Of a stretch of 35,833 nt of DNA, positions 1-21,733 are shown one piece after another (positions within the stretch are counted from its first letter, which is position 1; each line of letters begins with the position of its first letter). This stretch comes from a virus. The notes under the pieces were generated by a model. The model had not been told where the DNA came from. It worked only from the letters and a program-made list of their open reading frames with translations, and made no database searches. The position numbers were made by a program, and so were the translations under genes. The DNA lies in IMG/VR virus record IMGVR_UViG_3300038301_000232, positions 1 to 35,833 of that record; one strand, 5' to 3'.

Positions 1-1
1 A

Positions 2-619
2 AAAGCCGAAACGGTAGAAGGCAAGGCGCCACGGAGAAAAAGAGGCTATCACTATTTATTTAATACACGACTTAAGACGGTGTTGTGGAAGGTAGGTGAA
101 CAGATTATGAAGAAAACTAATCCGTTTTACAGGGACATCTACCTTGCTCACCGGGAAAAGCTTGAAAATAAAAACAAAGCAGGAGGGTACCCAAGGGCGT
201 TTGTGTATGGTGTTAGTAAGGCTCAGGCCTTTAAGAACAGGATTAGTAAGTTGCAAGATAATGGATATGGGATTGTTTATAGAGATAAGCTTAATGATGT
301 TTTCAAGGGTGTTGATGTATTGTCATCAGATGAAAAAGTACAAGAGCAATTGGATGAAGGTAAAAAGTACCCGATAATCATAAAGGAAGAAGGTGTTTCT
401 TCCGGGCATATCTTTGCAATGGCAAAGCGCAAAGCGGCGAAAGTGTTTCTCTTCCACTTTTACGAGGCGTGGCGAACGCTCGAAGGTCTTCCGGTGCGGC
501 CACCTTATGTAATTGAAAAACTTGGACACACGGGCTTTGTTTCCTGGCAAGATCTCAAGAAGGTATTAATTGCTGAAGAAGCTGCAGCAAAGGAAAATCT
601 GAAAAAGAAAAAAGCTTAG
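2..619 (+). CDS. tas: Tas-like Nop-domain protein (IS110 Tnp_20-like C-terminus), 5' partial
   Basis: Likely RNA-binding effector of a TIGR-Tas system. The frame is open from base 2 to the stop at 617-619, so the gene starts before the window; the first in-window start-like codon (80) falls inside conserved sequence and is not the real start. Visible, numbering from base 2: GYHYLFNTRLKTVLWKVGEQ (residues 15-34), NPFYRDIYLAHREKL, then GHIFAMAKRKAAKVFLFHFY (from 135) and EGLPVRPPYVIEKLGHT. This order resembles the C-terminal Tnp_20 domain of IS110 transposases, which is related to the Nop fold of Tas proteins. About 65 residues separate the two blocks, more than I expect in IS110. The tail is Lys/Ala-rich with no HNH-like motif. 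A RuvC domain, if any, would lie upstream, so TasA and TasR cannot be separated. The array begins 12 bases downstream, which strongly supports Tas over a transposase; no insertion-sequence ends are visible. The family match is from memory of motifs. Confidence 0.72.
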   Translation, partial: KAETVEGKAPRRKRGYHYLFNTRLKTVLWKVGEQIMKKTNPFYRDIYLAHREKLENKNKAGGYPRAFVYGVSKAQAFKNRISKLQDNGYGIVYRDKLNDVFKGVDVLSSDEKVQEQLDEGKKYPIIIKEEGVSSGHIFAMAKRKAAKVFLFHFYEAWRTLEGLPVRPPYVIEKLGHTGFVSWQDLKKVLIAEEAAAKENLKKKKA

Positions 620-631
620 TTAAGATGGAAG

Positions 632-1206
632 TTAAAAACAGAATTATAGTGTGAGTTAATACAGATTTTAAAAACAATGATATAGTGTGAGATACTTAGA
701 GGGTTAATAACGAGAGCAAGATTTGAGCAAAGGATGCAATTAAAAACCATGGTTGATTTCGAGAAGATAAGGAAATTAAAAACACTGTAATTGTTTGAGA
801 CGCATTGGAGATTAATAACAGGGGGAGTATTTGAGAAAAAGGATGCATTGAAAACAAGAATTTCATTTGAGATATCATGTCTTTTAAAAACGAAGGAGAC
901 ATTTGAGAAAGATTTAACATTAAAAACAAAATAGGGATTTGAGACAAGGGTAGTATTAAAAACTGATGTACTTTTTGAGGAATAATTGTATTAAAAACCG
1001 ATGTGTTTTTTGAATTAAAGAGGTTATTAAAAACAGCGTAGATTTTTGAGTTATTGAGATGATTAAAAACGGGTATCTGATCTGAGCGATAGATGGATTT
1101 AACAACAAACACGAAATTTGAGAAATTAATAGTATTAAAAACGCGATGTCTATTTGAGCCGTAACTATCATTAACAACAGATATGATATTTGAATTAGGA
1201 GAAAAA
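632..1206 (+). repeat. TIGR-like array: 16 units of 36 bases with two conserved blocks and two variable segments
   Basis: Sixteen units start at 632, 668, 704, 740, 776, 812, 848, 884, 920, 956, 991, 1027, 1063, 1099, 1135 and 1171. Each reads TTAAAAAC, 10 variable bases, TTTGAG, about 12 variable bases. The period is 36 throughout except one step of 35 (956 to 991). TTTGAG starts exactly 18 bases after TTAAAAAC in every unit. Variants are TTAATAAC, TTGAAAAC and TTAACAAC for block one, and TGTGAG, TTCGAG, TCTGAG and TTTGAA for block two. The variable segments mostly differ from each other. The array starts 12 bases after the tas stop and ends at the ribosome binding site of the next gene. Known TIGR arrays give 36-nt tigRNAs with two short spacers between edge and loop repeats, and this matches that plan. 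It is not CRISPR: no block is longer than 8 bases. Alternatives are an operator or iteron array. Direction is inferred from the upstream gene. Confidence 0.8.
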
Positions 1207-1207
1207 T

Positions 1208-2290
1208 ATGAAACTTGATTTTGTGATTTATGCAAATTCTAATCATACTGGCTTTGGGACGCATGCAAGAGGTGTGATGAAGGCATTGTGCCTCGCTGGA
1301 AAAAACATTGCCTTTGTGCCAGTTCAGCCAATAGCGCACCAGATAATTGATAGTCCTTGGCTTGAGTGGCTTGAAAGGTCGCTCCGGAATAGGGAGTACC
1401 TTACAGGCAAAGATCCGGCAATAATGATTCATCATGCAGAATCAATGATAAGGTTTTGCGGGAAGCCCAGGTGCGGTTTTGCAATTTTTGAGACGAACAA
1501 GATACATGCAAAGGATATAGTTTATTACAAGACGTTGGATAAAATACTCGTACCGTCGCAATGGGGCAAACAGGTATTGATTGATAATGGCTTGGATGGG
1601 AATGAAATAATGATTATGCCGGAGGGCTACGATCCAGAAAATTACTACGTGAAACATTCTATTGATGAAGTAATCCACAGATGGAAGCAGCGGGGGTATC
1701 TTTCGTTTTTCCATTGTGGGAAATATGAAGATCGCAAATCAAGCACAATGATAATCCATGCATTTCAACAGGCGGTCAATGAATCCGGTGTTATGGCTCA
1801 GTTATACATGAAATGCGAGAATCCTTTTAATGGTATATGGTTTGAAGAATTTGAACACGCACGAGGTGATTGTGAGTTTATACATACTTATGGCCAGGGT
1901 AATATAGAAAATATGGACATATTATATCATAATTTTGATTTCGGGTTATATGCGAGTAAGGGAGAAGCATTTGGCTTGCCAATAATTGAATCCATTGCAT
2001 GTGGACTTCCCACAATAACCTCGAATTGGAGTGGACAGAGTGAATACCTGAAAGAATATCCAAGAGAATTATTAATTACCAAAGGTACACAAGAATTAGC
2101 CAATGACGGAATGTTTTTCAATGGTAACCATGGCAATTGGATTGTGCCTGATTATGACCAATTGGTTGAAAAGATCAAATATGTATTGGAAAACGCAGAA
2201 GATATTTATAGGAATGCGCGCCAAAAATGTGTGGATTCGGTTAAAGATTTTACTTGGAAGAATGCTGTAAGGAGGCTAATCGATGGTTAA
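1208..2290 (+). CDS. GT4-family glycosyltransferase
   Basis: A 360-residue retaining glycosyltransferase of the GT-B fold, expected to move a sugar from a nucleotide-sugar donor to an unidentified acceptor in the cytoplasm. The N-terminal half has the opening glycine-rich segment NSNHTGFGTHARGVMKAL (residues about 11-28). The C-terminal half carries the family's E-x7-E region, GEAFGLPIIE (about 252-261), followed by SIACGLPTITS and a conserved Glu near YL. The length is normal for a single-domain GT4 enzyme. The ATG is preceded by TTAGGAG, which forms part of the last array unit, so the gene follows the array without any gap and may be co-transcribed with it. The next gene overlaps its end by 8 bases. 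Two more GT4 genes lie at 23392 and 24766. The family is clear; donor and acceptor cannot be read from sequence. Confidence 0.88.
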   Translation: MKLDFVIYANSNHTGFGTHARGVMKALCLAGKNIAFVPVQPIAHQIIDSPWLEWLERSLRNREYLTGKDPAIMIHHAESMIRFCGKPRCGFAIFETNKIHAKDIVYYKTLDKILVPSQWGKQVLIDNGLDGNEIMIMPEGYDPENYYVKHSIDEVIHRWKQRGYLSFFHCGKYEDRKSSTMIIHAFQQAVNESGVMAQLYMKCENPFNGIWFEEFEHARGDCEFIHTYGQGNIENMDILYHNFDFGLYASKGEAFGLPIIESIACGLPTITSNWSGQSEYLKEYPRELLITKGTQELANDGMFFNGNHGNWIVPDYDQLVEKIKYVLENAEDIYRNARQKCVDSVKDFTWKNAVRRLIDG

Positions 2291-2654
2291 AAAGATAATT
2301 GTTATTGTGTTAATAATGGTTTTGACTGGATGTTATACGTCCAGGATCTACGTAAAAGACTTTAACGGAGGATATGCCAAGACCACCGAGGCGGTATTAA
2401 ATGCAATTGGCAAACAGGGTGCACGTGTAAAGCGCAGGGCTGATGTCGGAAAGGATAACGCCATGTATGTAGTTGGTACCGGCCTCTGGGATGCCGGGAT
2501 TTGGGGAAGGGAAGTCTGTATTGAAGTGAGAAAAATTGACGAGCATAATACAGAAGTGTCATTTCTTGACATGTACTACACTCAAAAGGCTGATTGGCAC
2601 AAAGAAATATTTAGTTTTATTGAAAGCTATATTAAATTAAATTTCGAGGAATAG
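2283..2654 (+). CDS. Small lipoprotein
   Basis: A 123-residue protein with a clear lipoprotein signal: MVKKIIVIVLIMVLTGCYTS has a basic start, a hydrophobic core and an LTGC lipobox with the lipidated Cys at residue 17. The mature part is a small mixed alpha/beta domain with TGLWDAGIWGREVCIEVRKI and a TEVSF strand near its end. It looks like the small periplasmic lipoproteins of DUF3568 type, but I hold that match loosely. It would sit in the inner leaflet of the outer membrane, or on the outer face of the cytoplasmic membrane. The start overlaps the upstream glycosyltransferase by 8 bases, which suggests translational coupling. Phage lipoproteins of this size can act in superinfection exclusion by shielding a receptor; here that is only a possibility. 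Confidence 0.78.
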   Translation: MVKKIIVIVLIMVLTGCYTSRIYVKDFNGGYAKTTEAVLNAIGKQGARVKRRADVGKDNAMYVVGTGLWDAGIWGREVCIEVRKIDEHNTEVSFLDMYYTQKADWHKEIFSFIESYIKLNFEE

Positions 2655-2657
2655 TAA

Positions 2658-3974
2658 TTGAAAATAATACAGAAATCAATTGAAGTTGGTATCGGACAGT
2701 TAGAAAACTGGAAACATAACGCGCGGGAAATACACAAATCAGACTTTGAAAGGCTTAAAGAGCAAATAACTGATCTCGGTATCTATAAGCCCATGGTTTG
2801 CTATGAAGAAGCCGGTAAGTACATTGTCCTTGGCGGAAACATGAGGCTGCGAGCAATAAAGGAATTAGGCTATGAAAAAGGGTGGATTACCGTAGTATTG
2901 CCGGATAACGAGGAAGAGAAGATTAAAATCAACCTAAGCGATAATGACCGGGCTGGTTTTTACGATGACGAAGCTTTTGCAGAGGTAATTTACCCATTTA
3001 AGGATAATGAAATATGGAGTAATTACAAACTGGATTTTAATATTCCGGACAAAACGGTTGACGATTTTGCACGTGAGCAATTCGAAGAAGAAGAAACGGC
3101 AGGGAATACAGATGATGACGCGGTGCCGGGTTTGCCAGATGAGGCAAAAACCAAGCTTGGTGAGTTGTGGGTATTGGGTGATCACCGGGTTTTATGTGGG
3201 GATGCAACAAAAAGAGAGGATGTTGGCCAGTTGATGAATGGACAACTAATTGATTTACTGTTTTCTGATCCGCCGTATGGGGTGTTAATTGGCGATAAGA
3301 ATAAGATGCTTGACGAAATGGAGTATAATAGCAGGAAAAGCACATCGAAAGAGACTGGCAGAATCATAACAAATATTAAAAATGATACAATGTCTGTAGA
3401 AGATTTAAAAGATATGTTGACTACTGCTTTTTTAAATATAAAGAATGCCAGCAATGATAAATGCTCTTATTACGTAACTGCTCCTCAAGGCGGCGATCTT
3501 GGCATGATGATGATGATGATGAAAGACGCTGGCCTTCCGGTAAGACATGTGATCATATGGGTAAAAAACAGACAATGCTTTTCAATGGGCAGGCTTGATT
3601 ACGAGTATAAACATGAACCAATATTATACACTTGGAATAAAAGCCATGAATTCCATGGAAAGGGGAAGCACCTTAATTCTGTATGGGAAGTGGACAAGGT
3701 ACAAAAATGCGACATTCACCCAACCATGAAACCTGTAGATTTGATAATCAATGCTATAAAAAACAGTTCATTAGAAGGAAATAGTGTAGCTGATACTTTC
3801 CTTGGATCAGGCTCGACACTAATAGCCTGTGAAAAGACAAACCGTAAATGCTACGGTATGGAACTTGACCCATTGCATATAGATGTGATTTTGCAAAGAT
3901 GGGCTGACTTTACAGGCGAAGATCCTGTCAGGGAAGATGGTGTTAAGTGGAGCGATATAACTACTTTGACTTAA
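2658..3974 (+). CDS. ParB-like domain fused to DNA N6-adenine/N4-cytosine methyltransferase
   Basis: A 438-residue two-domain protein starting with TTG. Residues about 5-95 form a ParB/Srx-like domain: FERLKEQITDLGIYKPMVCY, then GKYIVLGGNMRLRAIKELGY. Residues about 165-430 form an amino-methyltransferase of the PF01555 type, with the catalytic motif SDPPYGV near residue 204 and the SAM-binding motif DTFLGSGSTLIACEKTNRKC near 380. DPPY before FxGxG is the beta-class order. HPTMKP, usual just before the SAM motif in this class, is also present. Both domains look complete. Such fusions are common in phages and prophages and probably methylate phage DNA, often against host restriction. No restriction nuclease is next to it, so it looks like a solitary enzyme. 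Target sequence and whether it modifies A or C are unknown. Confidence 0.9.
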   Translation: MKIIQKSIEVGIGQLENWKHNAREIHKSDFERLKEQITDLGIYKPMVCYEEAGKYIVLGGNMRLRAIKELGYEKGWITVVLPDNEEEKIKINLSDNDRAGFYDDEAFAEVIYPFKDNEIWSNYKLDFNIPDKTVDDFAREQFEEEETAGNTDDDAVPGLPDEAKTKLGELWVLGDHRVLCGDATKREDVGQLMNGQLIDLLFSDPPYGVLIGDKNKMLDEMEYNSRKSTSKETGRIITNIKNDTMSVEDLKDMLTTAFLNIKNASNDKCSYYVTAPQGGDLGMMMMMMKDAGLPVRHVIIWVKNRQCFSMGRLDYEYKHEPILYTWNKSHEFHGKGKHLNSVWEVDKVQKCDIHPTMKPVDLIINAIKNSSLEGNSVADTFLGSGSTLIACEKTNRKCYGMELDPLHIDVILQRWADFTGEDPVREDGVKWSDITTLT

Positions 3975-4187
3975 TCATGAAATCGCATCTGTATTGCCGA
4001 TCAACTGCATGAGTTTGATAGATTCCGAGCTTCAAGCAGCCGTGATATCCGGCCACTTGGGAATAAGGAAACCTGTAACAGGTAGTGTCATCAGGTAGCA
4101 TCCTTTAAATTGAGCCTGTCGAATAACAAGGAGGAATCTATCAGTTCATAATCACTTGCCGCGTATGGCAGAAAGGATATCAAGATT

Positions 4188-4436
4188 ATGGTAGCATATA
4201 CACAGGAAGACGAAGATAACAAAATCGCAAAAGATAAAGCGGTCAACGTGAATGAGGTTGTTATAAAACATTGTCCGTTCTGTGGAAGAGTTCCCGTTCC
4301 CGTTGATGGTGGTGAAGGCGTGGACAACGTTCTGAAGATTGTTAAGCAAGTTTATCACCCTCGAATCAAAGGAATTGAATGCCCTTTAAATATCTTAATA
4401 TTTAAATTAAAGGCTTGGAATCAAAGGGCTTTATAA
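4188..4436 (+). CDS. Lar-like small zinc-ribbon protein
   Basis: An 82-residue protein with a CPFCGRVP knuckle at about residue 29 and an AWNQRAL ending. This is the usual layout of Lar-type restriction alleviation proteins: an N-terminal CPFCG and a C-terminal AWN-R. Only one further Cys (in GIECPL, about residue 63) is visible where the family usually has a second CxxC, so zinc binding may be incomplete or use His. A purine-rich GAAAGGA lies upstream of the ATG. The preceding 213 bases show no convincing gene. It follows a phage DNA methyltransferase, which fits a role against host restriction, but many Lar-like phage proteins have no proven function. Confidence 0.6.
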   Translation: MVAYTQEDEDNKIAKDKAVNVNEVVIKHCPFCGRVPVPVDGGEGVDNVLKIVKQVYHPRIKGIECPLNILIFKLKAWNQRAL

Positions 4437-4447
4437 CTGTCATAGAT

Positions 4448-4520
4448 CAGCTTCCACCAGTTGGTCTAAAACTATACTAATCAATTAGAATCAGATCGCA
4501 CGAGCAATGGTGGTAAGCTG
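4448..4520. repeat. Inverted repeat with long loop
   Basis: CAGCTTCCACCA (4448-4459) is the reverse complement of TGGTGGTAAGCTG (4508-4520), apart from one extra base. The 48 bases between the arms show no clear stem of their own. The repeat fills most of the short gap between two small genes. It has no U-run, so it is not a standard terminator. It could be an RNA structure, a protein-binding repeat or the relic of a small insertion. Confidence 0.4.
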
Positions 4521-4547
4521 GAGCGGTTTGTTATCTGCGAGGAAGAA

Positions 4548-4754
4548 ATGACAGATGCCCCTTTCTGGTGTAAAAAAGGTGAGACTCTTTACAAAAACAA
4601 ATGGACATGCGACAATGCAGAATACGAGGAATATGGTGCAGAGTGGCAAAATGAGATGATGAAGCATACAAAGACAGAGCTGGTTCAGAAGTTAAAATCA
4701 TCATATAAAGTGGCCGGAATATATAAGGAACAGGTACTCAGTAGTTATCGATAG
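4548..4754 (+). CDS. Small hypothetical protein
   Basis: A 68-residue acidic and Trp-rich protein of unknown function. It contains DAPFWCKKGETLYKNKWTCD with two Cys residues, and a helical Lys-rich C-terminus ending VLSSYR. The same frame stays open upstream of the ATG and reads KLERFVICEEEMTDAPFWC, which looks coding, so the true start may be earlier at a non-ATG codon, or the gene may have lost its 5' end. No good ribosome binding site is visible at the ATG except the purine run GCGAGGAAGAA directly before it. I recognise no family. Confidence 0.5.
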   Translation: MTDAPFWCKKGETLYKNKWTCDNAEYEEYGAEWQNEMMKHTKTELVQKLKSSYKVAGIYKEQVLSSYR

Positions 4755-4828
4755 CAGATAACTTTCCCTAATAAGCGGGCGTGTATTTTACGCTCCGCTT
4801 CATGGGTTTGTTAGGTGTTTTAAATACG

Positions 4829-5407
4829 ATGAATAAAAATAAAATAATACTTGATTTATGTGGTGGTACTGGGAGTTGGAGCCATCCGTATAAGGAAGCG
4901 GGGTACGATGTGAGGGTGATTACGCTACCTGAACATGATGTACTGATATACAAGCCACCAGACAATGTTTATGGTATTTTAGCTGCGCCACCATGTACTC
5001 ATTTTAGTGTGTCTGGTGCTCAATATTGGAAGCAGAAAGATGCAGACGGCAGGACATTTGAAGATATTCGAATACTCACCGCTTGTTTAATGATAATAAT
5101 TAATACAAGACCTGCATTTTTTGCAATAGAAAACCCTATAGGCAGAATTAGAAAACTTTTAGGAGATCCAGAGTTAAAATTTGATCCATGTGATTACGGA
5201 GATCCTTGGACAAAGAAAACATACTTATGGGGTAAGTTTAATTTGCCACAACAAAATAAAGTAGAACCGGAGCATGTAACAGCGAGTAACGGAGATCGTT
5301 ATAGTGAAATAATGATGTCTACAGGCGGGAAAAGCGCAAAGACAAAAGAACTTAGAAGCATAACACCGCCTGGCTTTGCAGAAGCGTTTTTCAAAGCCAA
5401 TAAATAA
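4829..5407 (+). CDS. Short C5-cytosine-methyltransferase-like protein
   Basis: About 192 residues from the ATG at 4829, or 208 if the earlier ATG at 4781 is used; the Rossmann strand starts just after the later ATG, so I prefer it. Visible motifs: SAM-binding ILDLCGGTGSWSHPYKEAG, the catalytic-loop motif AAPPCTHFS with Pro-Pro-Cys, and AIENPIGRI corresponding to the ENV/ENP motif. These are motifs I, IV and VI of C5 cytosine methyltransferases. The protein is much shorter than the usual 300 or more residues, and I see no distinct target-recognition domain. Small phage proteins of this type are common and are usually annotated as DNA cytosine methyltransferases, though activity is often unproven. 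It may modify phage DNA together with the methyltransferase at 2658. Confidence 0.78.
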   Translation: MNKNKIILDLCGGTGSWSHPYKEAGYDVRVITLPEHDVLIYKPPDNVYGILAAPPCTHFSVSGAQYWKQKDADGRTFEDIRILTACLMIIINTRPAFFAIENPIGRIRKLLGDPELKFDPCDYGDPWTKKTYLWGKFNLPQQNKVEPEHVTASNGDRYSEIMMSTGGKSAKTKELRSITPPGFAEAFFKANK

Positions 5408-5436
5408 GTATTTAAAAACTTAACAAATTGGATACA

Positions 5437-5450
5437 TGGAAAATTTTCCA
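5437..5450. promoter_or_regulatory. 14-base perfect palindrome
   Basis: TGGAAAATTTTCCA is perfectly self-complementary and sits in a 69-base gap between the methyltransferase-like gene and the next small gene. A dimeric DNA-binding protein could use it as an operator. Chance occurrence is quite possible in AT-rich DNA, and no -35/-10 pair is convincingly placed around it. Confidence 0.3.
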
Positions 5451-5476
5451 CTATACCACCTTATTAAACGCAAAAC

Positions 5477-5710
5477 ATGGAAAAAATAAAGAGTAGAATG
5501 TTTTGGAATGCATTCTGTTGTGTGTTCGGTTGTGTAGTTATCGAGCGTCAACCTGTGAGCGAGAAGCTTTTCGCTATACCATTAAAATACTACACTTGTA
5601 TACGATGCAAAAAGCAACATACCACAATGGATCCAACTAGACATGTTAATTGTAGATGTATGTCTCAATTGATGAAATTTAGTGTAACAACACATGGAAA
5701 TAGACAATAA
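5477..5710 (+). CDS. Small Cys-rich hypothetical protein
   Basis: A 77-residue protein with a hydrophobic, Cys-containing N-terminus (FWNAFCCVFGCVV) and the motif YYTCIRCKKQH (about residues 38-48) followed by NCRCMSQL. The Cys pairs CIRC and CRC suggest a small metal-binding knuckle. The end overlaps the TerS-like gene by 17 bases, which suggests the two are translated together. No family recognised. No strong ribosome binding site is seen, so I hold it at medium confidence. Confidence 0.5.
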   Translation: MEKIKSRMFWNAFCCVFGCVVIERQPVSEKLFAIPLKYYTCIRCKKQHTTMDPTRHVNCRCMSQLMKFSVTTHGNRQ

Positions 5711-6260
5711 GCGAGAAGTAGGGAGACCATCAAAATATACACCAGAGCTACAGTCCAAGTTCGATGAAATGGTAAACGGACTTTATAGCGATGATGTAAA
5801 GACGGCATTTGATAACTACTTTAAATACGGGATATTAGAGCAGATATGTCTTTTCCTTGACCTTGATTTATCTTCAGTTTACAAATGGTCTGACCATAAA
5901 GACGATGGTTTTAAACCAGAATTTTCCAAGACCTTAAACAAGTGGTATATCATTACAAAGGCATTGGTTCATGTTATCACCCCGGCAATGGCATCAAAAG
6001 CCCCAGCAATGGCCATATTTTTGCGCAAGACGAAGCTTGGTGAGCTAGAGGTGACTAAACATATACTTGAGACTAAAATACAGGACAGCTTAAAGGTAGA
6101 GGGCAAGACAAAGATGGAAATAGATTTGATGGCGGATATTGAGGATGCCAGGTTGTACGGCATGGATGAAGGCCAGATTGCAGAGGTTGAGGCTTTATTG
6201 ATTGAGGTTCAGAAGACGCGGAGTATTGCGAAGGCTGGGAATAATGGGAATGGAAATTGA
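5694..6260 (+). CDS. Terminase small subunit-like protein
   Basis: A 188-residue protein with the layout of many phage small terminases. The start REVGRPSKYTPELQSKFDEM is a typical GRPSKYTPE opening. A helix-turn-helix region follows (EQICLFLDLDLSSVYKWSDH, about residues 49-68), then a helical stretch with AMASKAPAMAIFLRKTKLGE and a charged C-terminal helix. Small terminases bind the packaging site and pass DNA to the large subunit. The large subunit begins about 1 kb downstream with only small genes between. The start codon lies inside the upstream small gene. DNA recognition site is not evident. Confidence 0.78.
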   Translation: MEIDNKREVGRPSKYTPELQSKFDEMVNGLYSDDVKTAFDNYFKYGILEQICLFLDLDLSSVYKWSDHKDDGFKPEFSKTLNKWYIITKALVHVITPAMASKAPAMAIFLRKTKLGELEVTKHILETKIQDSLKVEGKTKMEIDLMADIEDARLYGMDEGQIAEVEALLIEVQKTRSIAKAGNNGNGN

Positions 6261-6471
6261 ATTAATAGGTGGAATAAAAGATGGTGAAGTGATGGCGGTT
6301 CTAAAAACGTGCCATCATGTTAAGTTTTTTAAATGTCATGGATTAAGTGGGCCATTAGGCGACAATGGCGATAAGGTAATAAAATTATCAGACATGGAAG
6401 AGATATATTATGATTGGGATGGTATTACATATAATCCTGCAGGACAGGCGAAGTTTTATTTAAGGAAGTGA
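6244..6471 (+). CDS. Small hypothetical protein
   Basis: About 75 residues from the ATG at 6244 (MGMEIELIGGIKDG); a second ATG at 6250 is possible. An upstream in-frame ATG at 6202 would add an Arg-rich stretch that merely overlaps the small terminase gene in another frame, so it is rejected as the start. The AAGG at 6231 is well placed for 6244. The protein looks like a small beta-rich domain with YYDWDGITYNPAGQAKFYLR at its end and CHHVKFFKCHG in the middle. It is followed after three bases by the next small gene. No family recognised. Confidence 0.55.
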   Translation: MGMEIELIGGIKDGEVMAVLKTCHHVKFFKCHGLSGPLGDNGDKVIKLSDMEEIYYDWDGITYNPAGQAKFYLRK

Positions 6472-6474
6472 AGA

Positions 6475-6699
6475 ATGAAAGAAGTTGAATGCCAAAAGGT
6501 GCCACCATCTATTGTTTATATTTGCCAATACTGTGGCACTAAAAACAGTGAGCCAGACCATTTGGAGGATTCTGGGGAGTTGAGGTATAGAAATACGACA
6601 GCCTCGATGTCTCCATTAAGAGGTATGCAGAAAACCAAATCAGATGTAATCATGTGCAGCGTATGTGGTCGTGATAATAAAGTGTTTAGTTTTATTTAA
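6475..6699 (+). CDS. Small zinc-ribbon protein
   Basis: A 74-residue protein with two Cys pairs in ribbon spacing: ICQYCGTKN (about residues 16-24) and VIMCSVCGRDNKVF (about 58-71). Four cysteines in two knuckles, each followed by Gly, make zinc binding likely. The loop between them is polar. It directly follows another small gene with a three-base gap. Its function is unknown; proteins of this kind in phages often bind nucleic acids or partner proteins. Confidence 0.65.
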   Translation: MKEVECQKVPPSIVYICQYCGTKNSEPDHLEDSGELRYRNTTASMSPLRGMQKTKSDVIMCSVCGRDNKVFSFI

Positions 6700-6721
6700 C
6701 CTTTGAGAGGAAGGAAGTGGT

Positions 6722-6832
6722 ATGAATAAGCGGAAAGTGTTGTTATATGGTATTTTTTTTGCATCCATGGCCGTAATGGTAACCGGCTTAATGTTTTTGT
6801 GTGTTGTCAGGAATGTAATAATAGAATATTAG
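6722..6832 (+). CDS. 36-residue single-span membrane peptide
   Basis: A short gene with an excellent ribosome binding site (GAGAGGAAGGAAG just before the ATG). The product starts MNKRKVLL and has one long hydrophobic segment covering about residues 6-34, so it should be a single transmembrane peptide with a basic N-terminus in the cytoplasm. It is a small phage membrane peptide of unknown role; a holin-like or host-modifying role is possible but unsupported. Confidence 0.6.
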   Translation: MNKRKVLLYGIFFASMAVMVTGLMFLCVVRNVIIEY

Positions 6833-6938
6833 CAATTTTGCCGGGAAGAGATTATGGAAAACAAAGAGATTAAAAAATTGGACGAGCAATTACCAGTCGG
6901 ATGAATGAGTTTGTTCTATTTTTTTGGAAAGGAAAATA

Positions 6939-7190
6939 ATGATTAAATACATGACTGGTGGGTGGCAAACAAAAATAGAAAAAGTAGAGATTGAGAGAGA
7001 AACAGGTAGTAGTGTATGGGTAGGTGGACGTAGGCATGAAAAACGTACTAATTGGCATATATATCATAATACATGGGATGAGGCCAGGACTTACCTGTTA
7101 GCTATGGCAACTCATAAAGTAAGGAGTTGTCAATCGAGCCTTGATAGCGCAAAAGCAGAATTATCCAAAATTAGTAAGTTAAAAAAATAG
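6939..7190 (+). CDS. Small hypothetical protein
   Basis: An 83-residue protein. The ATG at 6939 is chosen because GGAAAGGA lies 6 bases upstream; an in-frame TTG at 6924 lies within that ribosome binding site. The sequence has a likely beta-rich start (IKYMTGGWQTKIEKVEIERE), then WHIYHNTWDEARTYLLAMAT and a Lys/Ser-rich C-terminal helix that could form a coiled coil. It lies between the small and large terminase genes. No family recognised. Confidence 0.55.
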   Translation: MIKYMTGGWQTKIEKVEIERETGSSVWVGGRRHEKRTNWHIYHNTWDEARTYLLAMATHKVRSCQSSLDSAKAELSKISKLKK

Positions 7191-7201
7191 AACAAAGTAC
7201 T

Positions 7202-7221
7202 ATCATGCGTTTTTGCATGAT
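7202..7221 (+). terminator. Hairpin upstream of large terminase
   Basis: ATCATGC (7202-7208), a GTTTTT loop and GCATGAT (7215-7221) form a perfect 7-base-pair stem, 12 bases after the preceding stop codon. It is not followed by a U-run, so Rho-independent termination would be weak. Its place between a gene end and a promoter-like sequence at 7282 fits a transcript boundary. Confidence 0.4.
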
Positions 7222-7281
7222 GATAAATATATGCCGATAAATACTGGTGACAATTAAAACAAAGAAAGTATTGCAAGAAAC

Positions 7282-7290
7282 TGATATAAT
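7282..7290 (+). promoter_or_regulatory. Extended -10 promoter candidate
   Basis: TGATATAAT is a perfect extended -10 motif (TGnTATAAT). No good -35 hexamer sits at the right distance, which is acceptable for extended -10 promoters. A start point about 7 bases downstream would fall almost on the large terminase start codon at 7299, implying a leaderless or nearly leaderless transcript. No Shine-Dalgarno sequence is visible before that ATG. Confidence 0.4.
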
Positions 7291-7298
7291 GCCCATGT

Positions 7299-9020
7299 AT
7301 GCAAACAGCAGAAGACAGATTTAACATTGCACGTCTAAGCCTGAAGTTTGATGTTGCGAAGATCGCAAAGCAAAACGAAATATATGCCACGCAGCATCCC
7401 AGGCTTAAATTTGCAATTGAAAAGCATATCACGTCAAAAGGATATCGCCTCGAATTCACGAAACATGGTTATCTTATAGATTTATATAAGGACGATAGCC
7501 AAGAAATAGTTGTAAAGAAGCCTCGGCAAGTTGGTGCCTCTGAATGGATCTTCGTTTATATGTTTGAGGCATCTGTCCGGAAACTCACGTCATTTACAGT
7601 TCTTCCAAAACAAAAGCTCAGAGATTCATATGTAAAAACGAGGGTTGATCCGTTGCTGGATGGCGGGTGCTATAAAGCATTCAAGAGAAAGTCTGACGAA
7701 GGGAATTTGATGTTGAAGACTCTTAAGAAAGGCACAAATCTAATCTTTGTAGGTTCAAATTCCAGGACTGAGATGATTTCTCATCCTGCAGATATCCGAA
7801 TCATAGACGAATTAGATTATTGTGACCAAGAATATTTGTCACTGGCCGACAACACGCTTGACCATAGTAACCATGCAATAAAAATAGATATCAGCACCCC
7901 GACTCTTGAGAATGAGGGCATAGACGCAAAATTCAGCCTGTCAGACCAGAAGCATTGGTTTCTTAAGTGCCCACATTGCGGTCATCAACAGATATTGGAC
8001 TTCTTTGGTAATGTCCTGAGAAAAGATGAATATGTTAGTGATGAGTGGGTGCCTATCAGCGAGGACATACAGTTGCATTGTATAAAAGCCGATTGTAGAA
8101 AGGTAATGAACCGGTTCGCCATGGGAGAATATGTCGCCAGGGAGGAAAGCGACATTTCCGGATACATGATACCGGCGCTATGCCATCCCAAGAAAACTCC
8201 AGCAATTCTGTATGATAAATATATCAAATCAAAAAAGAGCGAACTTGAAAAACAGCACTTTCTTAACAATGATTTAGGCCTTACTTACTCGCCAGAAGGC
8301 GCAAGCATTTCAAAGAAAATACTTGACAATTGCAAACAAAGTTATACTTTAACAAGTACACACACCGATTATAACGACTGCTGTGTTATGGGAATTGACG
8401 TTGGCAAGTATTTTCACGTGACTATATGGAGATTAAGAGAGGAAAAACGCGAATTAGTATATATAAACAAATTACTTGTGGCTGATGACCGGAGCTTTGC
8501 GGAAATAAACCATTTGATTGAGGCTTACAGGGTGAGGCAAGGCATTGTTGATATGATGCCTGAGACAAAACTATCAAGTAAATTGTGTGAAAAAAGTGAC
8601 TTTGTGATATGGGGTTGTTATTATAGTACAGAAGAACAGCCAAAAGAAATATACAAAGAAGATAAAGAATTAAAACAGGTCAGGGCTCATAGAACATGGG
8701 TGATTGATGAAATGGTGGAGGACTACAAAAGCAGCAAGGTTTTTCTGCCACAAGAAGCACACGATATTGAAAAAGGTGAGTTTTATGCTCATATGCAAGC
8801 CCCAAAGCGCTTAATGGTAAGGGGTAACCATGGCAGGGTAAGGTTTGATTGGTCTGAGGGATCTAAGCCTGATCATTATTTCCATTCAGCAGTATATGCA
8901 AAGGTAGCACAGATGTTACTTGGTAATTATATAATCCTTGATAGTAAGGACTATGACATAGAAAGTAATGGCAGGGAGTTTACACCAGAAGAAGATAACA
9001 GTGACATATTCAGTTTATAA
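7299..9020 (+). CDS. Terminase large subunit, GpA-like
   Basis: A 573-residue packaging motor. It has an N-terminal ATPase with the Walker A-like VVKKPRQVGASEW (about residues 69-81) and Walker B plus catalytic Glu in DIRIIDELDYCD (about 166-177). Next comes a zinc-knuckle-like insertion with LKCPHCGHQ and a second Cys pair around CIKADC. The C-terminal RNase H-fold nuclease begins near MGIDVGKYFHVTIW (about 364), whose Asp fits the first metal ligand. GpA-type terminases of the PF05876 family commonly carry this CPxCG element. Length is normal. No ribosome binding site is seen at the ATG; see the promoter candidate just upstream. The portal gene follows after 18 bases, the usual order. Confidence 0.88.
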   Translation: MQTAEDRFNIARLSLKFDVAKIAKQNEIYATQHPRLKFAIEKHITSKGYRLEFTKHGYLIDLYKDDSQEIVVKKPRQVGASEWIFVYMFEASVRKLTSFTVLPKQKLRDSYVKTRVDPLLDGGCYKAFKRKSDEGNLMLKTLKKGTNLIFVGSNSRTEMISHPADIRIIDELDYCDQEYLSLADNTLDHSNHAIKIDISTPTLENEGIDAKFSLSDQKHWFLKCPHCGHQQILDFFGNVLRKDEYVSDEWVPISEDIQLHCIKADCRKVMNRFAMGEYVAREESDISGYMIPALCHPKKTPAILYDKYIKSKKSELEKQHFLNNDLGLTYSPEGASISKKILDNCKQSYTLTSTHTDYNDCCVMGIDVGKYFHVTIWRLREEKRELVYINKLLVADDRSFAEINHLIEAYRVRQGIVDMMPETKLSSKLCEKSDFVIWGCYYSTEEQPKEIYKEDKELKQVRAHRTWVIDEMVEDYKSSKVFLPQEAHDIEKGEFYAHMQAPKRLMVRGNHGRVRFDWSEGSKPDHYFHSAVYAKVAQMLLGNYIILDSKDYDIESNGREFTPEEDNSDIFSL

Positions 9021-9038
9021 CAAATTGAGGGTGAAGCG

Positions 9039-11549
9039 TTGTATATAATAGATCCATATAGTGAATACTCACACATTCCAGAGAACACCGTACCCAAAGA
9101 CCAAGAGACTTCCACAAGGCACATAACAAAAGAGATTGTCACCGCATCAAGCCGTATATTTAGGGCCTGGGGATTTGACGAATACAACCCAGATGATTTA
9201 GTCCAGAAAAAAGGCCTTCACACGTATTCGGAAATGCGCAAAGACTCACAAATCAAATCTATACAACAAACCAAGATTAAAGCACGTCTTAGCACCGATT
9301 ATGAGATTAAGGCAGGCGATCCAGACAATGCACTCAGCGTTGAAATGGCTGAATTTGTAGATTACAATCTTCTTAATATTAAGGAAACTTTCAAGGTCAA
9401 GCTGGCGGATATCATGACGGCTCGTGACTACGGTTATTCTCTGAGTGAAAAGATATTCGAGATTATAGCTACTGGTAGGTGGGCCGGCAAGATTGGTTTG
9501 CGTAATATCAAAACTAAAGAACCGTTCGATTATAGATTCCAAATAGATAAATTCAGAAACGTAACCGGAATAATCCGGGATAATGTAAATCAAGATATTG
9601 ATGGCGATTTAGGCACACATGCGAACCCATATCCTTTACATAAATTTATATTATATTCTGCAAATAAAGAATTTGGGAATCCATACGGCCAGTCTGATCT
9701 CAGAGAAGCATATAAGCCATGGTGGTCAAAAAACTTTGTTCTCAAGTTTATGAATATATATTTAGAACGCTTTGGGATGCCAACCCTTGCGGCTAAATAT
9801 GAGGACAAACATGCCAAAGACAAGAACCTTATGAATGTTATCGATAATTTGCTAAAAAATTATCAGTCTAAAGCAGGATTCAGGGTGCCAGAGGGAGTGA
9901 CGCTTGAATTATTAGAAGCAAAGCGCAAAGGGGAAGGTGGCTACATTGCGGCAATAGATAAGTATGATGTAATGATGGCCAGGGCGTTATTAATGCCTGA
10001 TATGGCGGCACAAGGTGGTTCTGGAGGTGGAAGCTATGCTCTGTCAAGAGAACGATTTGCATTGTTTGTATTGGTACTTGATGAAATGGGCGACGATATA
10101 GAGAATGCCGTTGTAGATGATCAGATAATTGAGCAGCTTATATTATTCAATTATGGAATTGTTGATAACGATTTGAAGCCGAAGTTTAAATTCGAATCAA
10201 TCCACGAGGATAACGTAGAAGTAAAGGCTAAAATAATAGACATACTTGTGAAAGCTGGTATTGTAAATCCTAACGAGGAGTGGGTGAGGGATTATACAAA
10301 TATTCCGGACAAACCACAGGAAATAAAGGATAAAGAAGCGGCAGATAAAACCCTCGCAGATAAACAGGTTCAGGATGCACTTAAAAAAGAAGAAGAAGAA
10401 AGGCGAGAACGAGAAGGCAGGAAGATCTCTGGTAATGTGCCGAGTGCCACAGCAAAAGACATTGAGAAGGCCAAAGCCATGCATCTTGATTTTGAACTAA
10501 CCAGAGAGCCAACGGTCTACGAAGTCAAGGTTGATTTCCCTGATCTCGATAAGCAGACACAATCGTATGAAGAGCATTTGACAGAAGATTTATTGGATGT
10601 TGTTCTTAAGTGGCGTTCTCAAATCATAAAACAATCAGAAAGTATATTAAAGAATAACGATAATAAGGCCATCAATAAAATGACATTAAGAAATGTTGGT
10701 GACTTCAAGAATATATTACGGAATTGGATGGTAAAGATTGACCTTGATAATAAATTCAGAGAATCACAGGTGTTAATAAACGGTGAAGTCCCTTTGCAAC
10801 TGGAGAAAAAGAAAATACCAAAGGCCGTTGCCTTTGCGCATATAATTGAATATGCCAGTGCTCCGGAATTTGACCCGTGGATGCCTATGCCAACGGCACA
10901 GGCCCTGGAATTTATGAGAACAAAGAGAATTGTCCGGAAAGTCCAAGAAGATGGATCTAGGACTGAATTGGTACTCGGTACCACTAAAGAGATGGCATAT
11001 TATGAGGACACTGCTTTTGCTATTAGTGGCATTGAATCAACTCATATTCTTAATCAATCAAAAATGATATTATTTGATGCTATTGCAACTGGCGATGCCA
11101 AGACTGCGACAGTGAATCTTGAGAATCTATTTGATAGGTATATCGATAAAGGATCTATAAGTGCTAATCTGACAACCCCAAACAGGCTTAATACAATCGT
11201 CAGGAACAACGTTAGTACGGCTCAGAACAGGGGACGGGAAATGTATTATAAAGATCCGGAGATTGCGGACTTTATTCCATTTGTACAGGTGTCGGCTATT
11301 TTAGATTCGAGGACTACTGATTATTGTGCTGGCCTTGATGGAAAGGTATTTAAAAAGACTGATGCACCAACTTTCCCGGCACACCATAATTGCCGTACTC
11401 ACACAGTGCCGATAACAACATTTGAAGCTAATAAAACGCCGCCAACGGTGTCAAGCCTTGCGGACGAAGAGGCGGATTTAAGAACAACGGGAAAGCAAAG
11501 TGCGGTTCGTGGCGTTGGATTTGGTGGAACTCCAATAGTGAAGGTATAA
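9039..11549 (+). CDS. Portal protein fused to MuF-type head morphogenesis domain
   Basis: An 836-residue protein starting with TTG behind a well-placed GAGG. Residues about 25-430 are a DUF935/Mu gp29-like portal, with TYSEMRKDSQIKSIQQTKIK near the start and PYGQSDLREAYKPWWSKNFV around 225. A Lys/Glu-rich linker containing KKEEEERREREGRK follows at about 450. The C-terminal part ends in a MuF-like domain: RNNVSTAQNRGREMYYKD, then SAILDSRTTDYCAGLDGKVF and PAHHNCRTHTVPIT near residues 750-790. In phage Mu the portal (gp29) and gpF (gp30) are separate genes; here they form one chain. The portal forms the ring at one vertex for DNA entry and exit. MuF proteins are minor head proteins often injected or placed near the portal. 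Confidence 0.88.
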   Translation: MYIIDPYSEYSHIPENTVPKDQETSTRHITKEIVTASSRIFRAWGFDEYNPDDLVQKKGLHTYSEMRKDSQIKSIQQTKIKARLSTDYEIKAGDPDNALSVEMAEFVDYNLLNIKETFKVKLADIMTARDYGYSLSEKIFEIIATGRWAGKIGLRNIKTKEPFDYRFQIDKFRNVTGIIRDNVNQDIDGDLGTHANPYPLHKFILYSANKEFGNPYGQSDLREAYKPWWSKNFVLKFMNIYLERFGMPTLAAKYEDKHAKDKNLMNVIDNLLKNYQSKAGFRVPEGVTLELLEAKRKGEGGYIAAIDKYDVMMARALLMPDMAAQGGSGGGSYALSRERFALFVLVLDEMGDDIENAVVDDQIIEQLILFNYGIVDNDLKPKFKFESIHEDNVEVKAKIIDILVKAGIVNPNEEWVRDYTNIPDKPQEIKDKEAADKTLADKQVQDALKKEEEERREREGRKISGNVPSATAKDIEKAKAMHLDFELTREPTVYEVKVDFPDLDKQTQSYEEHLTEDLLDVVLKWRSQIIKQSESILKNNDNKAINKMTLRNVGDFKNILRNWMVKIDLDNKFRESQVLINGEVPLQLEKKKIPKAVAFAHIIEYASAPEFDPWMPMPTAQALEFMRTKRIVRKVQEDGSRTELVLGTTKEMAYYEDTAFAISGIESTHILNQSKMILFDAIATGDAKTATVNLENLFDRYIDKGSISANLTTPNRLNTIVRNNVSTAQNRGREMYYKDPEIADFIPFVQVSAILDSRTTDYCAGLDGKVFKKTDAPTFPAHHNCRTHTVPITTFEANKTPPTVSSLADEEADLRTTGKQSAVRGVGFGGTPIVKV

Positions 11550-11551
11550 CT

Positions 11552-12112
11552 ATGGTAATGCTTCGTTTTTGGCAAAATAAAGAAAAAGAGACAAAAGAAA
11601 AGAGTCGTGGGCTTATTGAAGATATTTATAAAGCCGTGCAACTAATCGATGAAAAAGCAATTGCAATCGACAGCAGATTAACACAACATGAAAGAAGCAC
11701 TCACGAGATAATACAAAAAATATTTGAAAAATTAGAAGCTTATAAATGCCCACATGACGACGACATGGCATTAATGAAGGCTTATAACAAGAAGCAAAAT
11801 GGGCATATAAATGATATTTCAGTACAGGGGCAAGAGATAAAAACAAAATTAGATATCATTATTGCCGAGTCGGTTGGTGAAGAAAAGGCGAAAAAAGAGA
11901 TAATTGCAGAAACAAAACGATTGGATGAAAAAGCCAGAGACAAAAAAGCTTTTATTATAGCATTAATAAGTTGCATGCTTGTTGGTATTACGACGTTTTC
12001 TGGATTCTTTTTTTGGTATAAAAAAGATAATAGAATAACAAAGGCCGAGATAAAAGAAATGATATTAGAATTGAAGCCACTATCAGGAGGGATTGTCCGT
12101 GGAAAAAGATAA
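11552..12112 (+). CDS. Coiled-coil protein with C-terminal membrane segment
   Basis: A 186-residue protein. Residues about 15-125 are highly charged and helical, consistent with a coiled coil (IAESVGEEKAKKEIIAETKR region). Residues about 134-156 (AFIIALISCMLVGITTFSGF) form one transmembrane segment, followed by a short charged tail. This layout resembles XhlA-type phage proteins, though it is about twice as long as those. It lies between the portal gene and a papain-fold enzyme and overlaps the latter by 14 bases, so the two may work together at the membrane. A holin-associated or spanin-like role is inference only. Confidence 0.6.
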   Translation: MVMLRFWQNKEKETKEKSRGLIEDIYKAVQLIDEKAIAIDSRLTQHERSTHEIIQKIFEKLEAYKCPHDDDMALMKAYNKKQNGHINDISVQGQEIKTKLDIIIAESVGEEKAKKEIIAETKRLDEKARDKKAFIIALISCMLVGITTFSGFFFWYKKDNRITKAEIKEMILELKPLSGGIVRGKR

Positions 12113-12725
12113 AGAAATAGTCCAGTATGACTGGATGAGGGACGAACTAAGGACAGGTGATATTGTTTTGTTTTCCGGAACTGGACTTATAAGCATGGGT
12201 ATCCAGTTTGCTTCCAGATCTCCATGGAGTCATGTCGGTATGGTGATAAAGGATGAAGAGTGGGACATGTTGCTATTATGGGAAAGCACGACATTGAGTA
12301 AAGTCAAAGACGTGGAAAGCAGGAACCAAAGGCAGGGAGTTGCAATAAGGCCTCTATCCGCAAGAATAAGAGATTATCCGTCAGGCCGTGTTGCTTTCAG
12401 ACGATTGCTTGATGTTGAGATGACATCTACAATCAGACAATCCCTTATTGGTTTAAGAAAAGAAATTAAAGGCCGTGACTATGAACAAAGCAAGATAGAG
12501 TTGATGAAATCTGCTTATGATGGCATATTCGGCGATAATGAAGAAGATTTATCAAGCATTTTCTGTAGCGAGTTAGTCGCTGAAGCTTTGCAAAGAATGG
12601 GCGTGTTAAAAGAACACGACGAACAAGGGGGATATCCGTCTAATGAATATACACCAGCCGATTTTGCCAAAGACAATATAATGGGGCATAAGAACGGTGC
12701 CTTTAGTGATCTAATTTATGTTTAA
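12099..12725 (+). CDS. Permuted NlpC/P60-like (YiiX-type) papain-fold enzyme
   Basis: About 208 residues from the GTG at 12099, chosen because AGGAGG at 12085-12090 is 8 bases upstream; the in-frame TTG at 12093 is too close to it. Motifs are LRTGDIVLFSGTGLISMGIQ near the start, SPWSHVGMVI with the likely catalytic His, and SIFCSELVAEALQRMG with the likely nucleophilic Cys. The His-before-Cys order marks the circularly permuted branch (DUF830/YiiX type) of the NlpC/P60 superfamily. No signal peptide. Members cleave peptide, amide or lipid-linked bonds; phage homologues may process cell wall or lipids. Substrate is unknown. The upstream gene encodes a membrane-anchored coiled coil, which is consistent with a lysis-type cluster. 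Confidence 0.75.
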   Translation: MEKDKEIVQYDWMRDELRTGDIVLFSGTGLISMGIQFASRSPWSHVGMVIKDEEWDMLLLWESTTLSKVKDVESRNQRQGVAIRPLSARIRDYPSGRVAFRRLLDVEMTSTIRQSLIGLRKEIKGRDYEQSKIELMKSAYDGIFGDNEEDLSSIFCSELVAEALQRMGVLKEHDEQGGYPSNEYTPADFAKDNIMGHKNGAFSDLIYV

Positions 12726-12741
12726 ATAAAAAGGAGATATC

Positions 12742-12906
12742 GTGGGCCCTAAAAAATGGTTTTTGATAGTCTTTTGCATTGCAATTGTTTTCCCTGTAAT
12801 TATAGGCGGATGTAATAGTTTGGGCATTGAGTCATTGGGAAACGGCAAGAACACGCCAACCGCTATTATAAAAGTATATGATAGGGATGGCAATATTGTT
12901 AAATAA
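12742..12906 (+). CDS. Small 54-residue lipoprotein
   Basis: A gene starting with GTG, with AAGGAG 5 to 6 bases upstream. The product begins MGPKKWFLIVFCIAIVFPVI and continues IGGCNS, a good lipobox with Cys at residue 24. The mature part is only about 31 residues (SLGIESLGNGKNTPTAII and a short tail). A lipoprotein this small beside a membrane protein and a papain-fold enzyme resembles the outer-membrane spanin subunit (Rz1 type), though Rz1 is usually Pro-rich and this is not. Spanin assignment is therefore speculative. Confidence 0.65.
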   Translation: MGPKKWFLIVFCIAIVFPVIIGGCNSLGIESLGNGKNTPTAIIKVYDRDGNIVK

Positions 12907-12908
12907 TC

Positions 12909-21724: not shown

Positions 21725-21733
21725 GGAGAATAA

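What the first reader, a model, noticed from the sequence alone, without database searches (positions are those of the whole stretch)
2..1207. Phage-borne TIGR-Tas locus: Nop-like protein followed by a dual-spacer guide array
A protein whose C-terminus resembles the IS110 Tnp_20/Nop domain is followed 12 bases later by 16 units of 36 bases with two conserved blocks and two variable segments per unit. TIGR-Tas systems consist of a Nop-domain Tas protein and an array that yields 36-nt guides with two short spacers, and they are known in phages. Either element alone would be weak evidence; the two together, with the exact period, are strong. The protein is cut at the window edge, so the nuclease class is open.
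Basis: partly seen in the sequence, partly recalled or inferred. Interest (0 to 1): 0.95.

Follow-up and report, generated by a model that had tools for sequence, protein, structure and literature searches.

The report
Phage TIGR-TasA guide RNA locus
A bacterial virus carries a small RNA-binding protein without scissors next to a string of 16 paired short guides: a new example of the recently described TIGR-Tas family of RNA-guided DNA-binding systems, whose natural targets are still unknown.

Summary
Window 614-1195 is an array of 16 units (14 steps of 36, one of 35), beyond chance (lag-36 identity 0.54; highest of 200 shuffles 0.375). The cut protein is completed by near-identical contig L002 (one mismatch over window 1-2329), which also shows a second, 5-unit array upstream. 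The protein (about 358 aa; model pLDDT 84) matches TasR at Z 21.0, rmsd 2.0 over 201 residues, and TasH at Z 20.3, starting where their nuclease domains end: a nuclease-less TasA. Of 28 viral relatives, 24 have a 34-37-nt periodic array beside the gene, against 2 of 223 control blocks. Repeats are divergent (edge TTTGAGnnA, loop TTAAAAACA), and a Cys/His insertion is shared with four of 17 aligned relatives. No target was found: self-targeting is at chance level in 13 phage genomes or contigs, this one included (29 of 232 parsed units against 27.3 expected). It is a new member of a known kind. Transcription, processing and DNA binding are inferred.

The parts
2..619 (+). 3' part of the tasA gene (205 codons visible). 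The complete gene is in L002 443-1519 (TTG start behind GGAGG, chosen by eye, about 358 aa; longest frame 374 aa from 395)
   Evidence: phmmer to TasR 9mty E 3.2e-15 and TasH 21kl E 7e-6; AlphaFold2 model pLDDT 84.1 and fold match to TasR Z 21.0
614..1195 (+). TIGR array: 16 loop repeats (consensus TTAAAAACA) alternating with edge repeats (consensus TTTGAGnnA), with 9-nt spacers A and B between them; unit 36 nt (one unit 35)
632..640 (+). first loop repeat; the others start at 668, 704, 740, 776, 812, 848, 884, 920, 956, 991, 1027, 1063, 1099, 1135, 1171
1189..1194 (+). last edge block TTTGAA. Arrays of relatives likewise end in a truncated edge (GCGA in L022, L026, L027). The next gene's AGGAG follows at 1198-1202 and its ATG at 1208

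Best explanation
The locus is a phage-encoded TIGR-TasA system. Shown: the gene, its predicted Nop-domain fold without a nuclease, and dual-repeat arrays before and after it. Inferred from the characterised relatives: tas and array are transcribed together on the + strand; the transcript is cut once within each edge repeat, probably by a host RNase and only when TasA is present, into about 36-nt tigRNAs (half edge, 9-nt spacer A, loop, 9-nt spacer B, half edge); a TasA dimer holds one tigRNA through box C/D-like letters in edge and loop; spacer A pairs with one strand and spacer B with the other strand of an adjacent 18-bp DNA site, opening and bending it. Lacking a nuclease, TasA would bind without cutting and so block transcription or replication of the target. 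The target is most likely foreign DNA (competing phages, plasmids) or host DNA, not the phage itself, since no self-target signal was found. The confidence given is for the identity as TIGR-TasA; for the binding-without-cutting mechanism I would say about 0.75, and for foreign or host DNA as target about 0.6.
For: Complete protein on L002, one mismatch to the window over bases 1-2329. phmmer: TasR 9mty E 3.2e-15 in colinear blocks, TasH 21kl E 7e-6, the only 2 PDB sequences at E <= 10. Fold: all 10 Foldseek hits at E <= 0.001 are TasR or TasH chains. VIA-align: TasR Z 21.0, rmsd 2.0, 201 residues, 26% identity, model 3..341 on TasR 110..322; TasH Z 20.3, rmsd 3.7, 236 residues, model 1..343 on 63..308. 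The aligned region begins after the nuclease domains. Array of 16 units and a second array of 5 units upstream with the same repeats. 24 of 28 viral relatives have a flanking array with period 34-37 (score >5) against 2 of 223 control blocks. The nearest relative, L022 (41% in the best tblastn segment), has edge TGCGAGCCA and loop TGAGAACCA, lining up with TTTGAGnnA and TTAAAAACA. Both arrays begin and end in edge repeats, as described for TIGR (description; here).
Against: No RNA data. No target found: in the window plus L021 no site with 2 or fewer mismatches, and true spacer pairing not better than mispaired controls (mean 3.86 against 4.04 mismatches, p 0.098). Exact tandem-target patterns of 4 of 21 units in the viral collection gave 0, 1, 0 and 13 hits, the 13 scattered and start-codon-like. 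No terminator-like site lies on the + strand in the 200 bases scanned after the array, unlike the typical case in the paper. The repeat letters (UU, ACA, nnA) depart from the UG/CCA of TasR arrays, and pairing of edge letters is not above shuffles (13 of 21 against 10.5, p 0.11). The spacers are purine-rich on the array strand (z 4.0 and 4.3) and C-poor, which opposite-strand pairing to ordinary targets does not predict. 4 of 28 relatives show no array by score, one of them (L041) having a short one by eye.
Confidence: 0.93

Rival explanations
1. IS110-family transposase remnant, with repeats that are part of an insertion sequence end.
For: PF02371 (Transposase IS116/IS110/IS902) matches residues 94-129 at E 1.4e-4; phrog_4285 is labelled transposase; fold similarity to IS621 Z 14.8.
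Against: The model aligns from IS621 residue 124-125 on, so the catalytic N-terminal domain is missing. PF02371 was the only Pfam family reported at E <= 10. TasR and TasH are closer in sequence and fold. 24 of 28 viral relatives carry a 34-37-nt array beside the gene.
Confidence: 0.02
2. Iteron-like DNA sites: the repeated blocks are binding sites for a phage protein (origin, partition or packaging) and not RNA guides. A ParB/methyltransferase gene lies downstream at 2658-3974.
For: Short exact-period repeats in a phage; the ORF at 2658-3974 carries N6_N4_Mtase (E 7.8e-23) and a weak ParB_N match (1.3e-4, below the Pfam cut-off).
Against: Two different alternating blocks with two variable segments; the same architecture beside relatives of a known tigRNA-binding protein in 24 of 28 loci. 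Near-identical L021 lacks window 2330-4258, including the ParB/methyltransferase gene, yet keeps array and tas.
Confidence: 0.03
3. A TIGR-TasA locus whose guides regulate the phage's own genome, e.g. lysogeny or late-gene control.
For: No nuclease, so self-binding would not cut; predicted targets of units 6 and 8 look like ribosome-binding site plus ATG, in this array more than in its shuffled pairings (2 against 0.35, p 0.03); true pairs have slightly fewer mismatches to the own genome than mispaired ones (3.86 against 4.04, p 0.098).
Against: No window or L021 site with 2 or fewer mismatches; in 13 genomes or contigs 29 of 232 parsed units at 2 or fewer mismatches against 27.3 expected; start-site resemblance not enriched over all arrays (2 against 1.0, p 0.26). 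The window is a fragment, so targets outside it are not excluded.
Confidence: 0.1

Closest known systems
TIGR-TasA systems, e.g. FpTIGR of Flavonifractor plautii (PMC12045711)
   Same: Solo Nop-domain protein without nuclease; dual-repeat array directly beside the gene; two 9-nt spacers per 36-nt unit; such loci are described in phages
   Different: Repeat letters TTTGAGnnA / TTAAAAACA; arrays on both sides of the gene (seen in L002; the paper allows upstream and/or downstream); a Cys/His-rich insertion (about residues 121-148) and a second long, low-confidence insertion (about 207-285). FpTasA sequence itself was not compared
TIGR-TasR of Thermoproteota archaeon (PDB 9mty)
   Same: Coiled coil plus Nop domain, Z 21.0, rmsd 2.0 over 201 residues; sequence E 3.2e-15
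   Different: No counterpart to TasR 1-109 (RuvC), so cleavage is not expected
TIGR-TasH of Salicola phage CGphi29 (PDB 9w04, 21kl and others)
   Same: Phage-borne; fold Z 20.3 over 236 residues; array directly downstream of the gene. The aligned 21kl stretch is identical to the CGphi29 translation
   Different: No HNH domain; spacers 9 nt rather than 8; different repeats (AAGCGAGCCA / AAGACAACCA)
IS110 family bridge-RNA recombinases (IS621, ISCro4)
   Same: Shared Nop-like fold, Z 14.8-15.0
   Different: N-terminal catalytic domain missing; array instead of a single bridge RNA
Nop5 of archaeal box C/D snoRNPs (PDB 1nt2)
   Same: Distant Nop fold, Z 9.0, rmsd 4.1 over 159 residues
   Different: Far lower similarity than to Tas proteins, and within the range of unrelated coiled-coil rows in the same list; DNA rather than RNA target expected

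Membership tests
TIGR-Tas (dual-repeat) | Nop-domain Tas protein related to TasR/TasH/TasA | tested here: met
   phmmer 9mty E 3.2e-15, 21kl E 7e-6; fold Z 21.0 and 20.3
TIGR-Tas (dual-repeat) | Array of alternating edge and loop repeats (8-12 nt) separated by about 9-nt spacers, beside the tas gene | tested here: met
   16 units of 36 nt (one 35), 9+9+9+9 layout; the edge repeat has only about 6-7 conserved letters
TIGR-Tas (dual-repeat) | Array begins and ends in a (truncated) edge repeat | tested here: met
   degenerate edge at 614-622, last edge TTTGAA at 1189-1194; truncated last edge also in L022, L026, L027
TIGR-Tas (dual-repeat) | Rho-independent terminator after the array (described as typical, not as defining) | tested here: not met
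   no terminator-like site on the + strand in the 200 bases after the array (L002 1-2300 scanned); the next gene's start follows at once
TIGR-Tas (dual-repeat) | Box D and box C letters shared between edge and loop (UG/CCA in TasR arrays; divergence with covariation allowed) | tested here: inconclusive
   loop UU...ACA, edge UU...nnA; T2 and A7 in all 21 loops, but the search pattern fixed these letters (no phase was skipped); pairing of edge letters across a tigRNA 13 of 21 against 10.5 shuffled, p 0.11
TIGR-Tas (dual-repeat) | Array transcribed and processed to 36-nt tigRNAs bound by Tas | not testable with these tools
   no RNA data
TIGR-Tas (dual-repeat) | Tandem-spacer DNA targeting | tested here: inconclusive
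   no target identified
TasA subtype | No nuclease domain fused to the Nop domain | tested here: met
   model residue 3 aligns with TasR 110 and residue 1 with TasH 63; Pfam shows only PF02371
IS110 transposon | DEDD catalytic domain N-terminal to Tnp_20 | tested here: not met
   complete protein lacks the part before IS621 residue 124-125; only PF02371 in Pfam at E <= 10
TasParB-associated TasA operon | parB-like gene in an operon with tasA | tested here: inconclusive
   a ParB_N (sub-threshold)/N6_N4 methyltransferase gene lies at 2658-3974, third gene after the array, and is absent from near-identical L021; TasParB sequence not compared

The most novel reading that the evidence does not exclude
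This belongs to a phage TasA subgroup with a zinc-ribbon-like insertion in the Nop region (C...HK...C...C pattern in 5 of 18 aligned proteins, this one included) and, in this locus, a switched box C/D letter set (UU with ACA or nnA instead of UG with CCA). Its spacers follow the base skew of their own strand, as if guides diversify by duplication and drift within the array and not by capture from targets.
Probability: 0.25. Interest if true: 0.55.

Novelty: new member of a known kind. Interest (0 to 1): 0.45.

Why it matters
TIGR-Tas was described in 2025, and its natural targets, spacer origin and phage role are listed as open by its discoverers. This locus adds a complete, nuclease-less phage example with two arrays, divergent repeats and an extra Cys/His-rich insertion. 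It also gives a test set: 24 viral loci with arrays (several near-duplicates), 13 genomes or contigs with parsed guides, and a negative result on self-targeting that shifts weight toward foreign or host targets. It could help define which repeat letters TasA reads.

Tried and rejected
Rfam scan of the window at gathering thresholds: no family. tRNA scan: none. Relatives in GTDB genome contigs by TasA (A2) and by the terminase: none found at that sensitivity, so the host stays unknown. Structure from a 2-sequence alignment was poor (pLDDT 41.6) and was not used.

The repeat-pattern scan of the viral collection gave 11 stretches; 2 are real arrays (L013, the L002 contig again, and L016), the other 9 are single matches without an array.

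Self-target search with true against mispaired spacers: not significant for the window and none over 13 genomes or contigs. For one search I took 11 of the 26 relatives' contigs that had handles (long ones; G018 and G020, also long, were left out), CGphi29 and the window plus the first 901 bases of L021. The parser was fuzzy: it counts some offset or false units and misses some real ones (24 rows for the window, where 21 units are real; list), so 232 is a parser count, not a clean unit count.

Exact tandem-target scans of the viral collection for 4 of 21 units (6, 3, 12, 8): 0, 1, 0 and 13 hits. The flanks of the 13 share no similarity beyond the site except L092/L096 (identical) and L097 (76%), and by eye the sites resemble ribosome-binding site plus ATG. 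The start-site motif used is recalled, not from a call. Enrichment of start-site-like targets: in the window rows 2 against 0.35 expected (p 0.03), over all arrays 2 against 1.0 (p 0.26).

A first impression that spacers A and B share purine skew across arrays did not survive removal of offset duplicates (rho 0.29, p 0.34). What remained is a correlation of spacer purine content with that of the contig strand (rho 0.77, p 0.002, 13 arrays). Within-unit correlation of A and B over 142 filtered units gave contradictory hints (purine p 0.047 in the direction expected for tandem targets, GC p 0.009 in the opposite direction), so I draw nothing from it. For one search units with 1 or fewer mismatches to an earlier A or B, and isolated units, were dropped.

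Spacer-to-spacer similarity within the arrays: not above column shuffles, except the most similar B pair at p 0.045.

The first periodicity null (27 blocks) was too small; with 223 blocks, 25 exceed its maximum, so I raised the threshold to score >5 with period 34-37, which 24 of 28 relatives and 2 of 223 control blocks reach (9 of 223 exceed 5 at any period). Each relative was scored on two flanks (where its contig allowed), each control on one block, and the controls come partly from other pieces of the same contigs. The four relatives below threshold are L018, L025, L030 and L041; L018 was first scored around a wrong frame and then rescored as L003 (3.0 on both sides); L041 has a short array visible by eye. 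Several of the 28 are near-duplicates (L031/L032/L033, L037/L039/L041, L043/L044, L046/L047/L048), so fewer than 24 cases are independent.

Full report
What is there. The window is a 35,833-base virus record. Its left edge cuts a gene (2-619). Twelve bases after the stop codon the first of 16 TTAAAAAC blocks begins; these alternate with TTTGAG-like blocks about 18 bases on, giving 14 steps of 36 and one of 35. The two blocks are conserved and the stretches between them vary. The best fit to the columns is four nines: loop TTAAAAACA, spacer B, edge TTTGAGnnA, spacer A. TTTGAG is taken as the edge because both arrays begin and end with it and because the other repeat is A-rich like TasR loops. 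The period is not chance: identity at lag 36 is 0.543 against at most 0.375 in 200 shuffles. The array runs straight into the ribosome-binding site of a glycosyltransferase gene at 1208.

Completing the gene. Another viral contig, L002 (IMGVR_UViG_3300024258_000196, 15,181 bases), matches window 1-2329 at 99.957% (one mismatch, at 280) and extends 900 bases further left. It contains the complete gene: the longest frame is 374 aa from 395; a TTG at 443 behind GGAGG, chosen by eye, gives 358 aa. Before the gene it holds a second array of 5 loop repeats with the same letters. A third contig, L016 (IMGVR_UViG_3300038326_000329), is 99.975% identical to window 973-13216 and holds the last units. 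L002's array equals that of the window letter for letter (window 606-1210); L016 shows one changed letter, in a loop repeat. Elsewhere window and L021 (the whole L002 contig) differ by several replaced or missing segments, so the array is stable while flanks change.

What the protein is. By sequence the complete protein matches only two solved proteins at E <= 10: TasR (9mty, 3.2e-15, colinear blocks) and TasH (21kl, 7e-6). Pfam finds only PF02371, at residues 94-129. From an alignment of 18 viral proteins (this one and 17 others) a structure was predicted with mean pLDDT 84.1, pTM 0.76; stretches 219-224 and 273-281 are below 50. All ten Foldseek hits at E <= 0.001 are TasR or TasH chains. 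VIA-align gives TasR Z 21.0 (rmsd 2.0, 201 residues, 26% identity, model 3..341 on TasR 110..322), TasH Z 20.3 (rmsd 3.7, 236 residues, model 1..343 on 63..308), ISCro4 15.0, IS621 14.8, Nop5 9.0. Helical proteins can score high by arrangement alone: unrelated coiled coils reach 10.3 here, so the Nop5 row alone says little, but the Tas rows stand well above and cover most of the model. The alignment begins where the nuclease domains of TasR and TasH end, so this is a solo-Nop TasA. Between the Nop halves sits an insertion with the pattern C...HK...C...C, seen also in L022, L003, L024 and L025, so 5 of 18 aligned rows; calling it zinc-ribbon-like is my inference. The word zinc does not occur in the main text of the TIGR-Tas paper.

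Relatives. A search of the viral collection with a 4-protein alignment gave 29 loci, one being L002's contig again, so 28 relatives. With an unsupervised periodicity score, 24 of 28 have a flanking array with period 34-37 at score >5, against 2 of 223 control blocks. Several relatives are near-duplicates, and the misses are told under Tried and rejected. Of the arrays that I folded by eye (14 loci, window not counted: L022, L023, L024, L026-L029, L033-L036, L042, L004 and L005), many show an edge core GCGAG and a loop ending in AACC, and several end in a truncated edge; L023, L024, L029 and L033 have other letters. The nearest relative L022 has TGCGAGCCA and TGAGAACCA, nine letters each, lining up with TTTGAGnnA and TTAAAAACA. 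Thus this locus departs from UG/CCA to UU/ACA. If the paired box letters are the second and the seventh, G-C has become U-A in the loops (T2 and A7 in all 21; the pattern that located them fixes these letters, but no phase was skipped). Which letters pair was not visible to me in the paper's text, so this is a suggestion. Two named phages show the same arrangement: CGphi29 (known TasH) and Microcystis phage Mvi-JY20, whose gene at record 21367-22092 is followed by a 36-nt array.

How it most likely works. From PMC12045711 (outline and abstract, sections 4-10, methods sections 23, 24 and 44, figure legends, and found passages; [quoted passage not shown] spacer A pairs with one strand and spacer B with the other of an adjacent site; gaps of up to 2 bp are tolerated; no flanking motif is needed; TasA lacks a nuclease and its function is open. 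From the stated 8-nt 3' overhangs I derived that a target reads spacer A followed by the reverse complement of spacer B. Applying this here, TasA with 21 guides (16 in the window, 5 in L002) should bind, bend and open matching DNA without cutting it. Everything from transcription onward is inferred.

Targets. No site with 2 or fewer mismatches in the window plus L021; true pairs are not significantly better than mispaired ones (3.86 against 4.04, p 0.098). In 13 genomes or contigs together, 29 of 232 parsed units have a site with 2 or fewer mismatches in their own genome against 27.3 expected, and 1 against 2.0 with 1 or fewer. Exact scans for 4 of 21 guides in the viral collection gave 0, 1, 0 and 13 hits, the last scattered and resembling ribosome-binding site plus ATG. 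Two of the window's predicted targets have that look, more than in its shuffled pairings (p 0.03), but not over all arrays (p 0.26). So self-targeting is not supported, and a foreign or host target remains unknown; the host itself could not be found.

Verdict. It is a new member of a known kind. Whether this contig is already in the paper's table S1 could not be checked. Of the papers listed by three searches (the Science paper, reviews, passing mentions and unrelated papers) I read only the Science paper, as stated above; the others were seen as listings.

Noticed in passing
L005 3177-3520 (Microcystis phage Mvi-JY20, PP438412.1, record about 22092-22435): A 36-nt dual-repeat array (TGCGAGCC / CGAAACCC) directly after a TasA-like hypothetical protein; the record annotates no repeat there but a hypothetical CDS (XAI95462.1) across part of it. 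The host is named as Microcystis viridis, so it may be a tractable system.
   Followed up: partly
phages collection: The Mvi-JY20 TasA-like protein matches 84 phage records at E <= 0.01, 76 of them Mycobacterium phages (about 29% identity), plus Gordonia, Rhodococcus and Acidianus viruses; arrays beside these were not examined.
   Followed up: no
window 740 and 848 (units 4 and 7), window 704 (unit 3) and L002 309 (upstream unit 3): Spacers A of units 4 and 7 share the 10-mer AAAGGATGCA shifted by one base; spacers B of unit 3 in each array share GAGAGCAA. Possible traces of unit duplication and drift.
   Followed up: partly
window 614-1195 and arrays of 12 related phage genomes or contigs: Spacer purine content follows that of the array's own contig strand (rho 0.77, p 0.002, 13 arrays); the spacers of this locus are C-poor (about 8%).
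   Followed up: partly
window 2658-3974: ORF with weak ParB_N and strong N6/N4 methyltransferase domains, absent from otherwise near-identical contig L021.
   Followed up: partly
window 1208-2290, 23392-24603, 24766-25872, 26624-27604, 30532-31905: An unusual load of metabolic-looking genes for a phage: the first is a glycosyltransferase; the others look by eye like glycosyltransferases and radical SAM proteins, not searched.
   Followed up: no
window 13700-14700: 51-base periodicity inside the S74-peptidase gene at 13275-15191, probably a protein repeat.
   Followed up: no
L022 3010-3030: The nearest relative's tas seems to start with an ATG behind GGAGG and meet an in-frame TAA after four codons; either a disrupted gene or a later start.
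   Followed up: no
L046, L047, L048: tas relatives reported with one in-frame TAG inside the matched stretch, possibly stop-codon recoding or an upstream extension.
   Followed up: no
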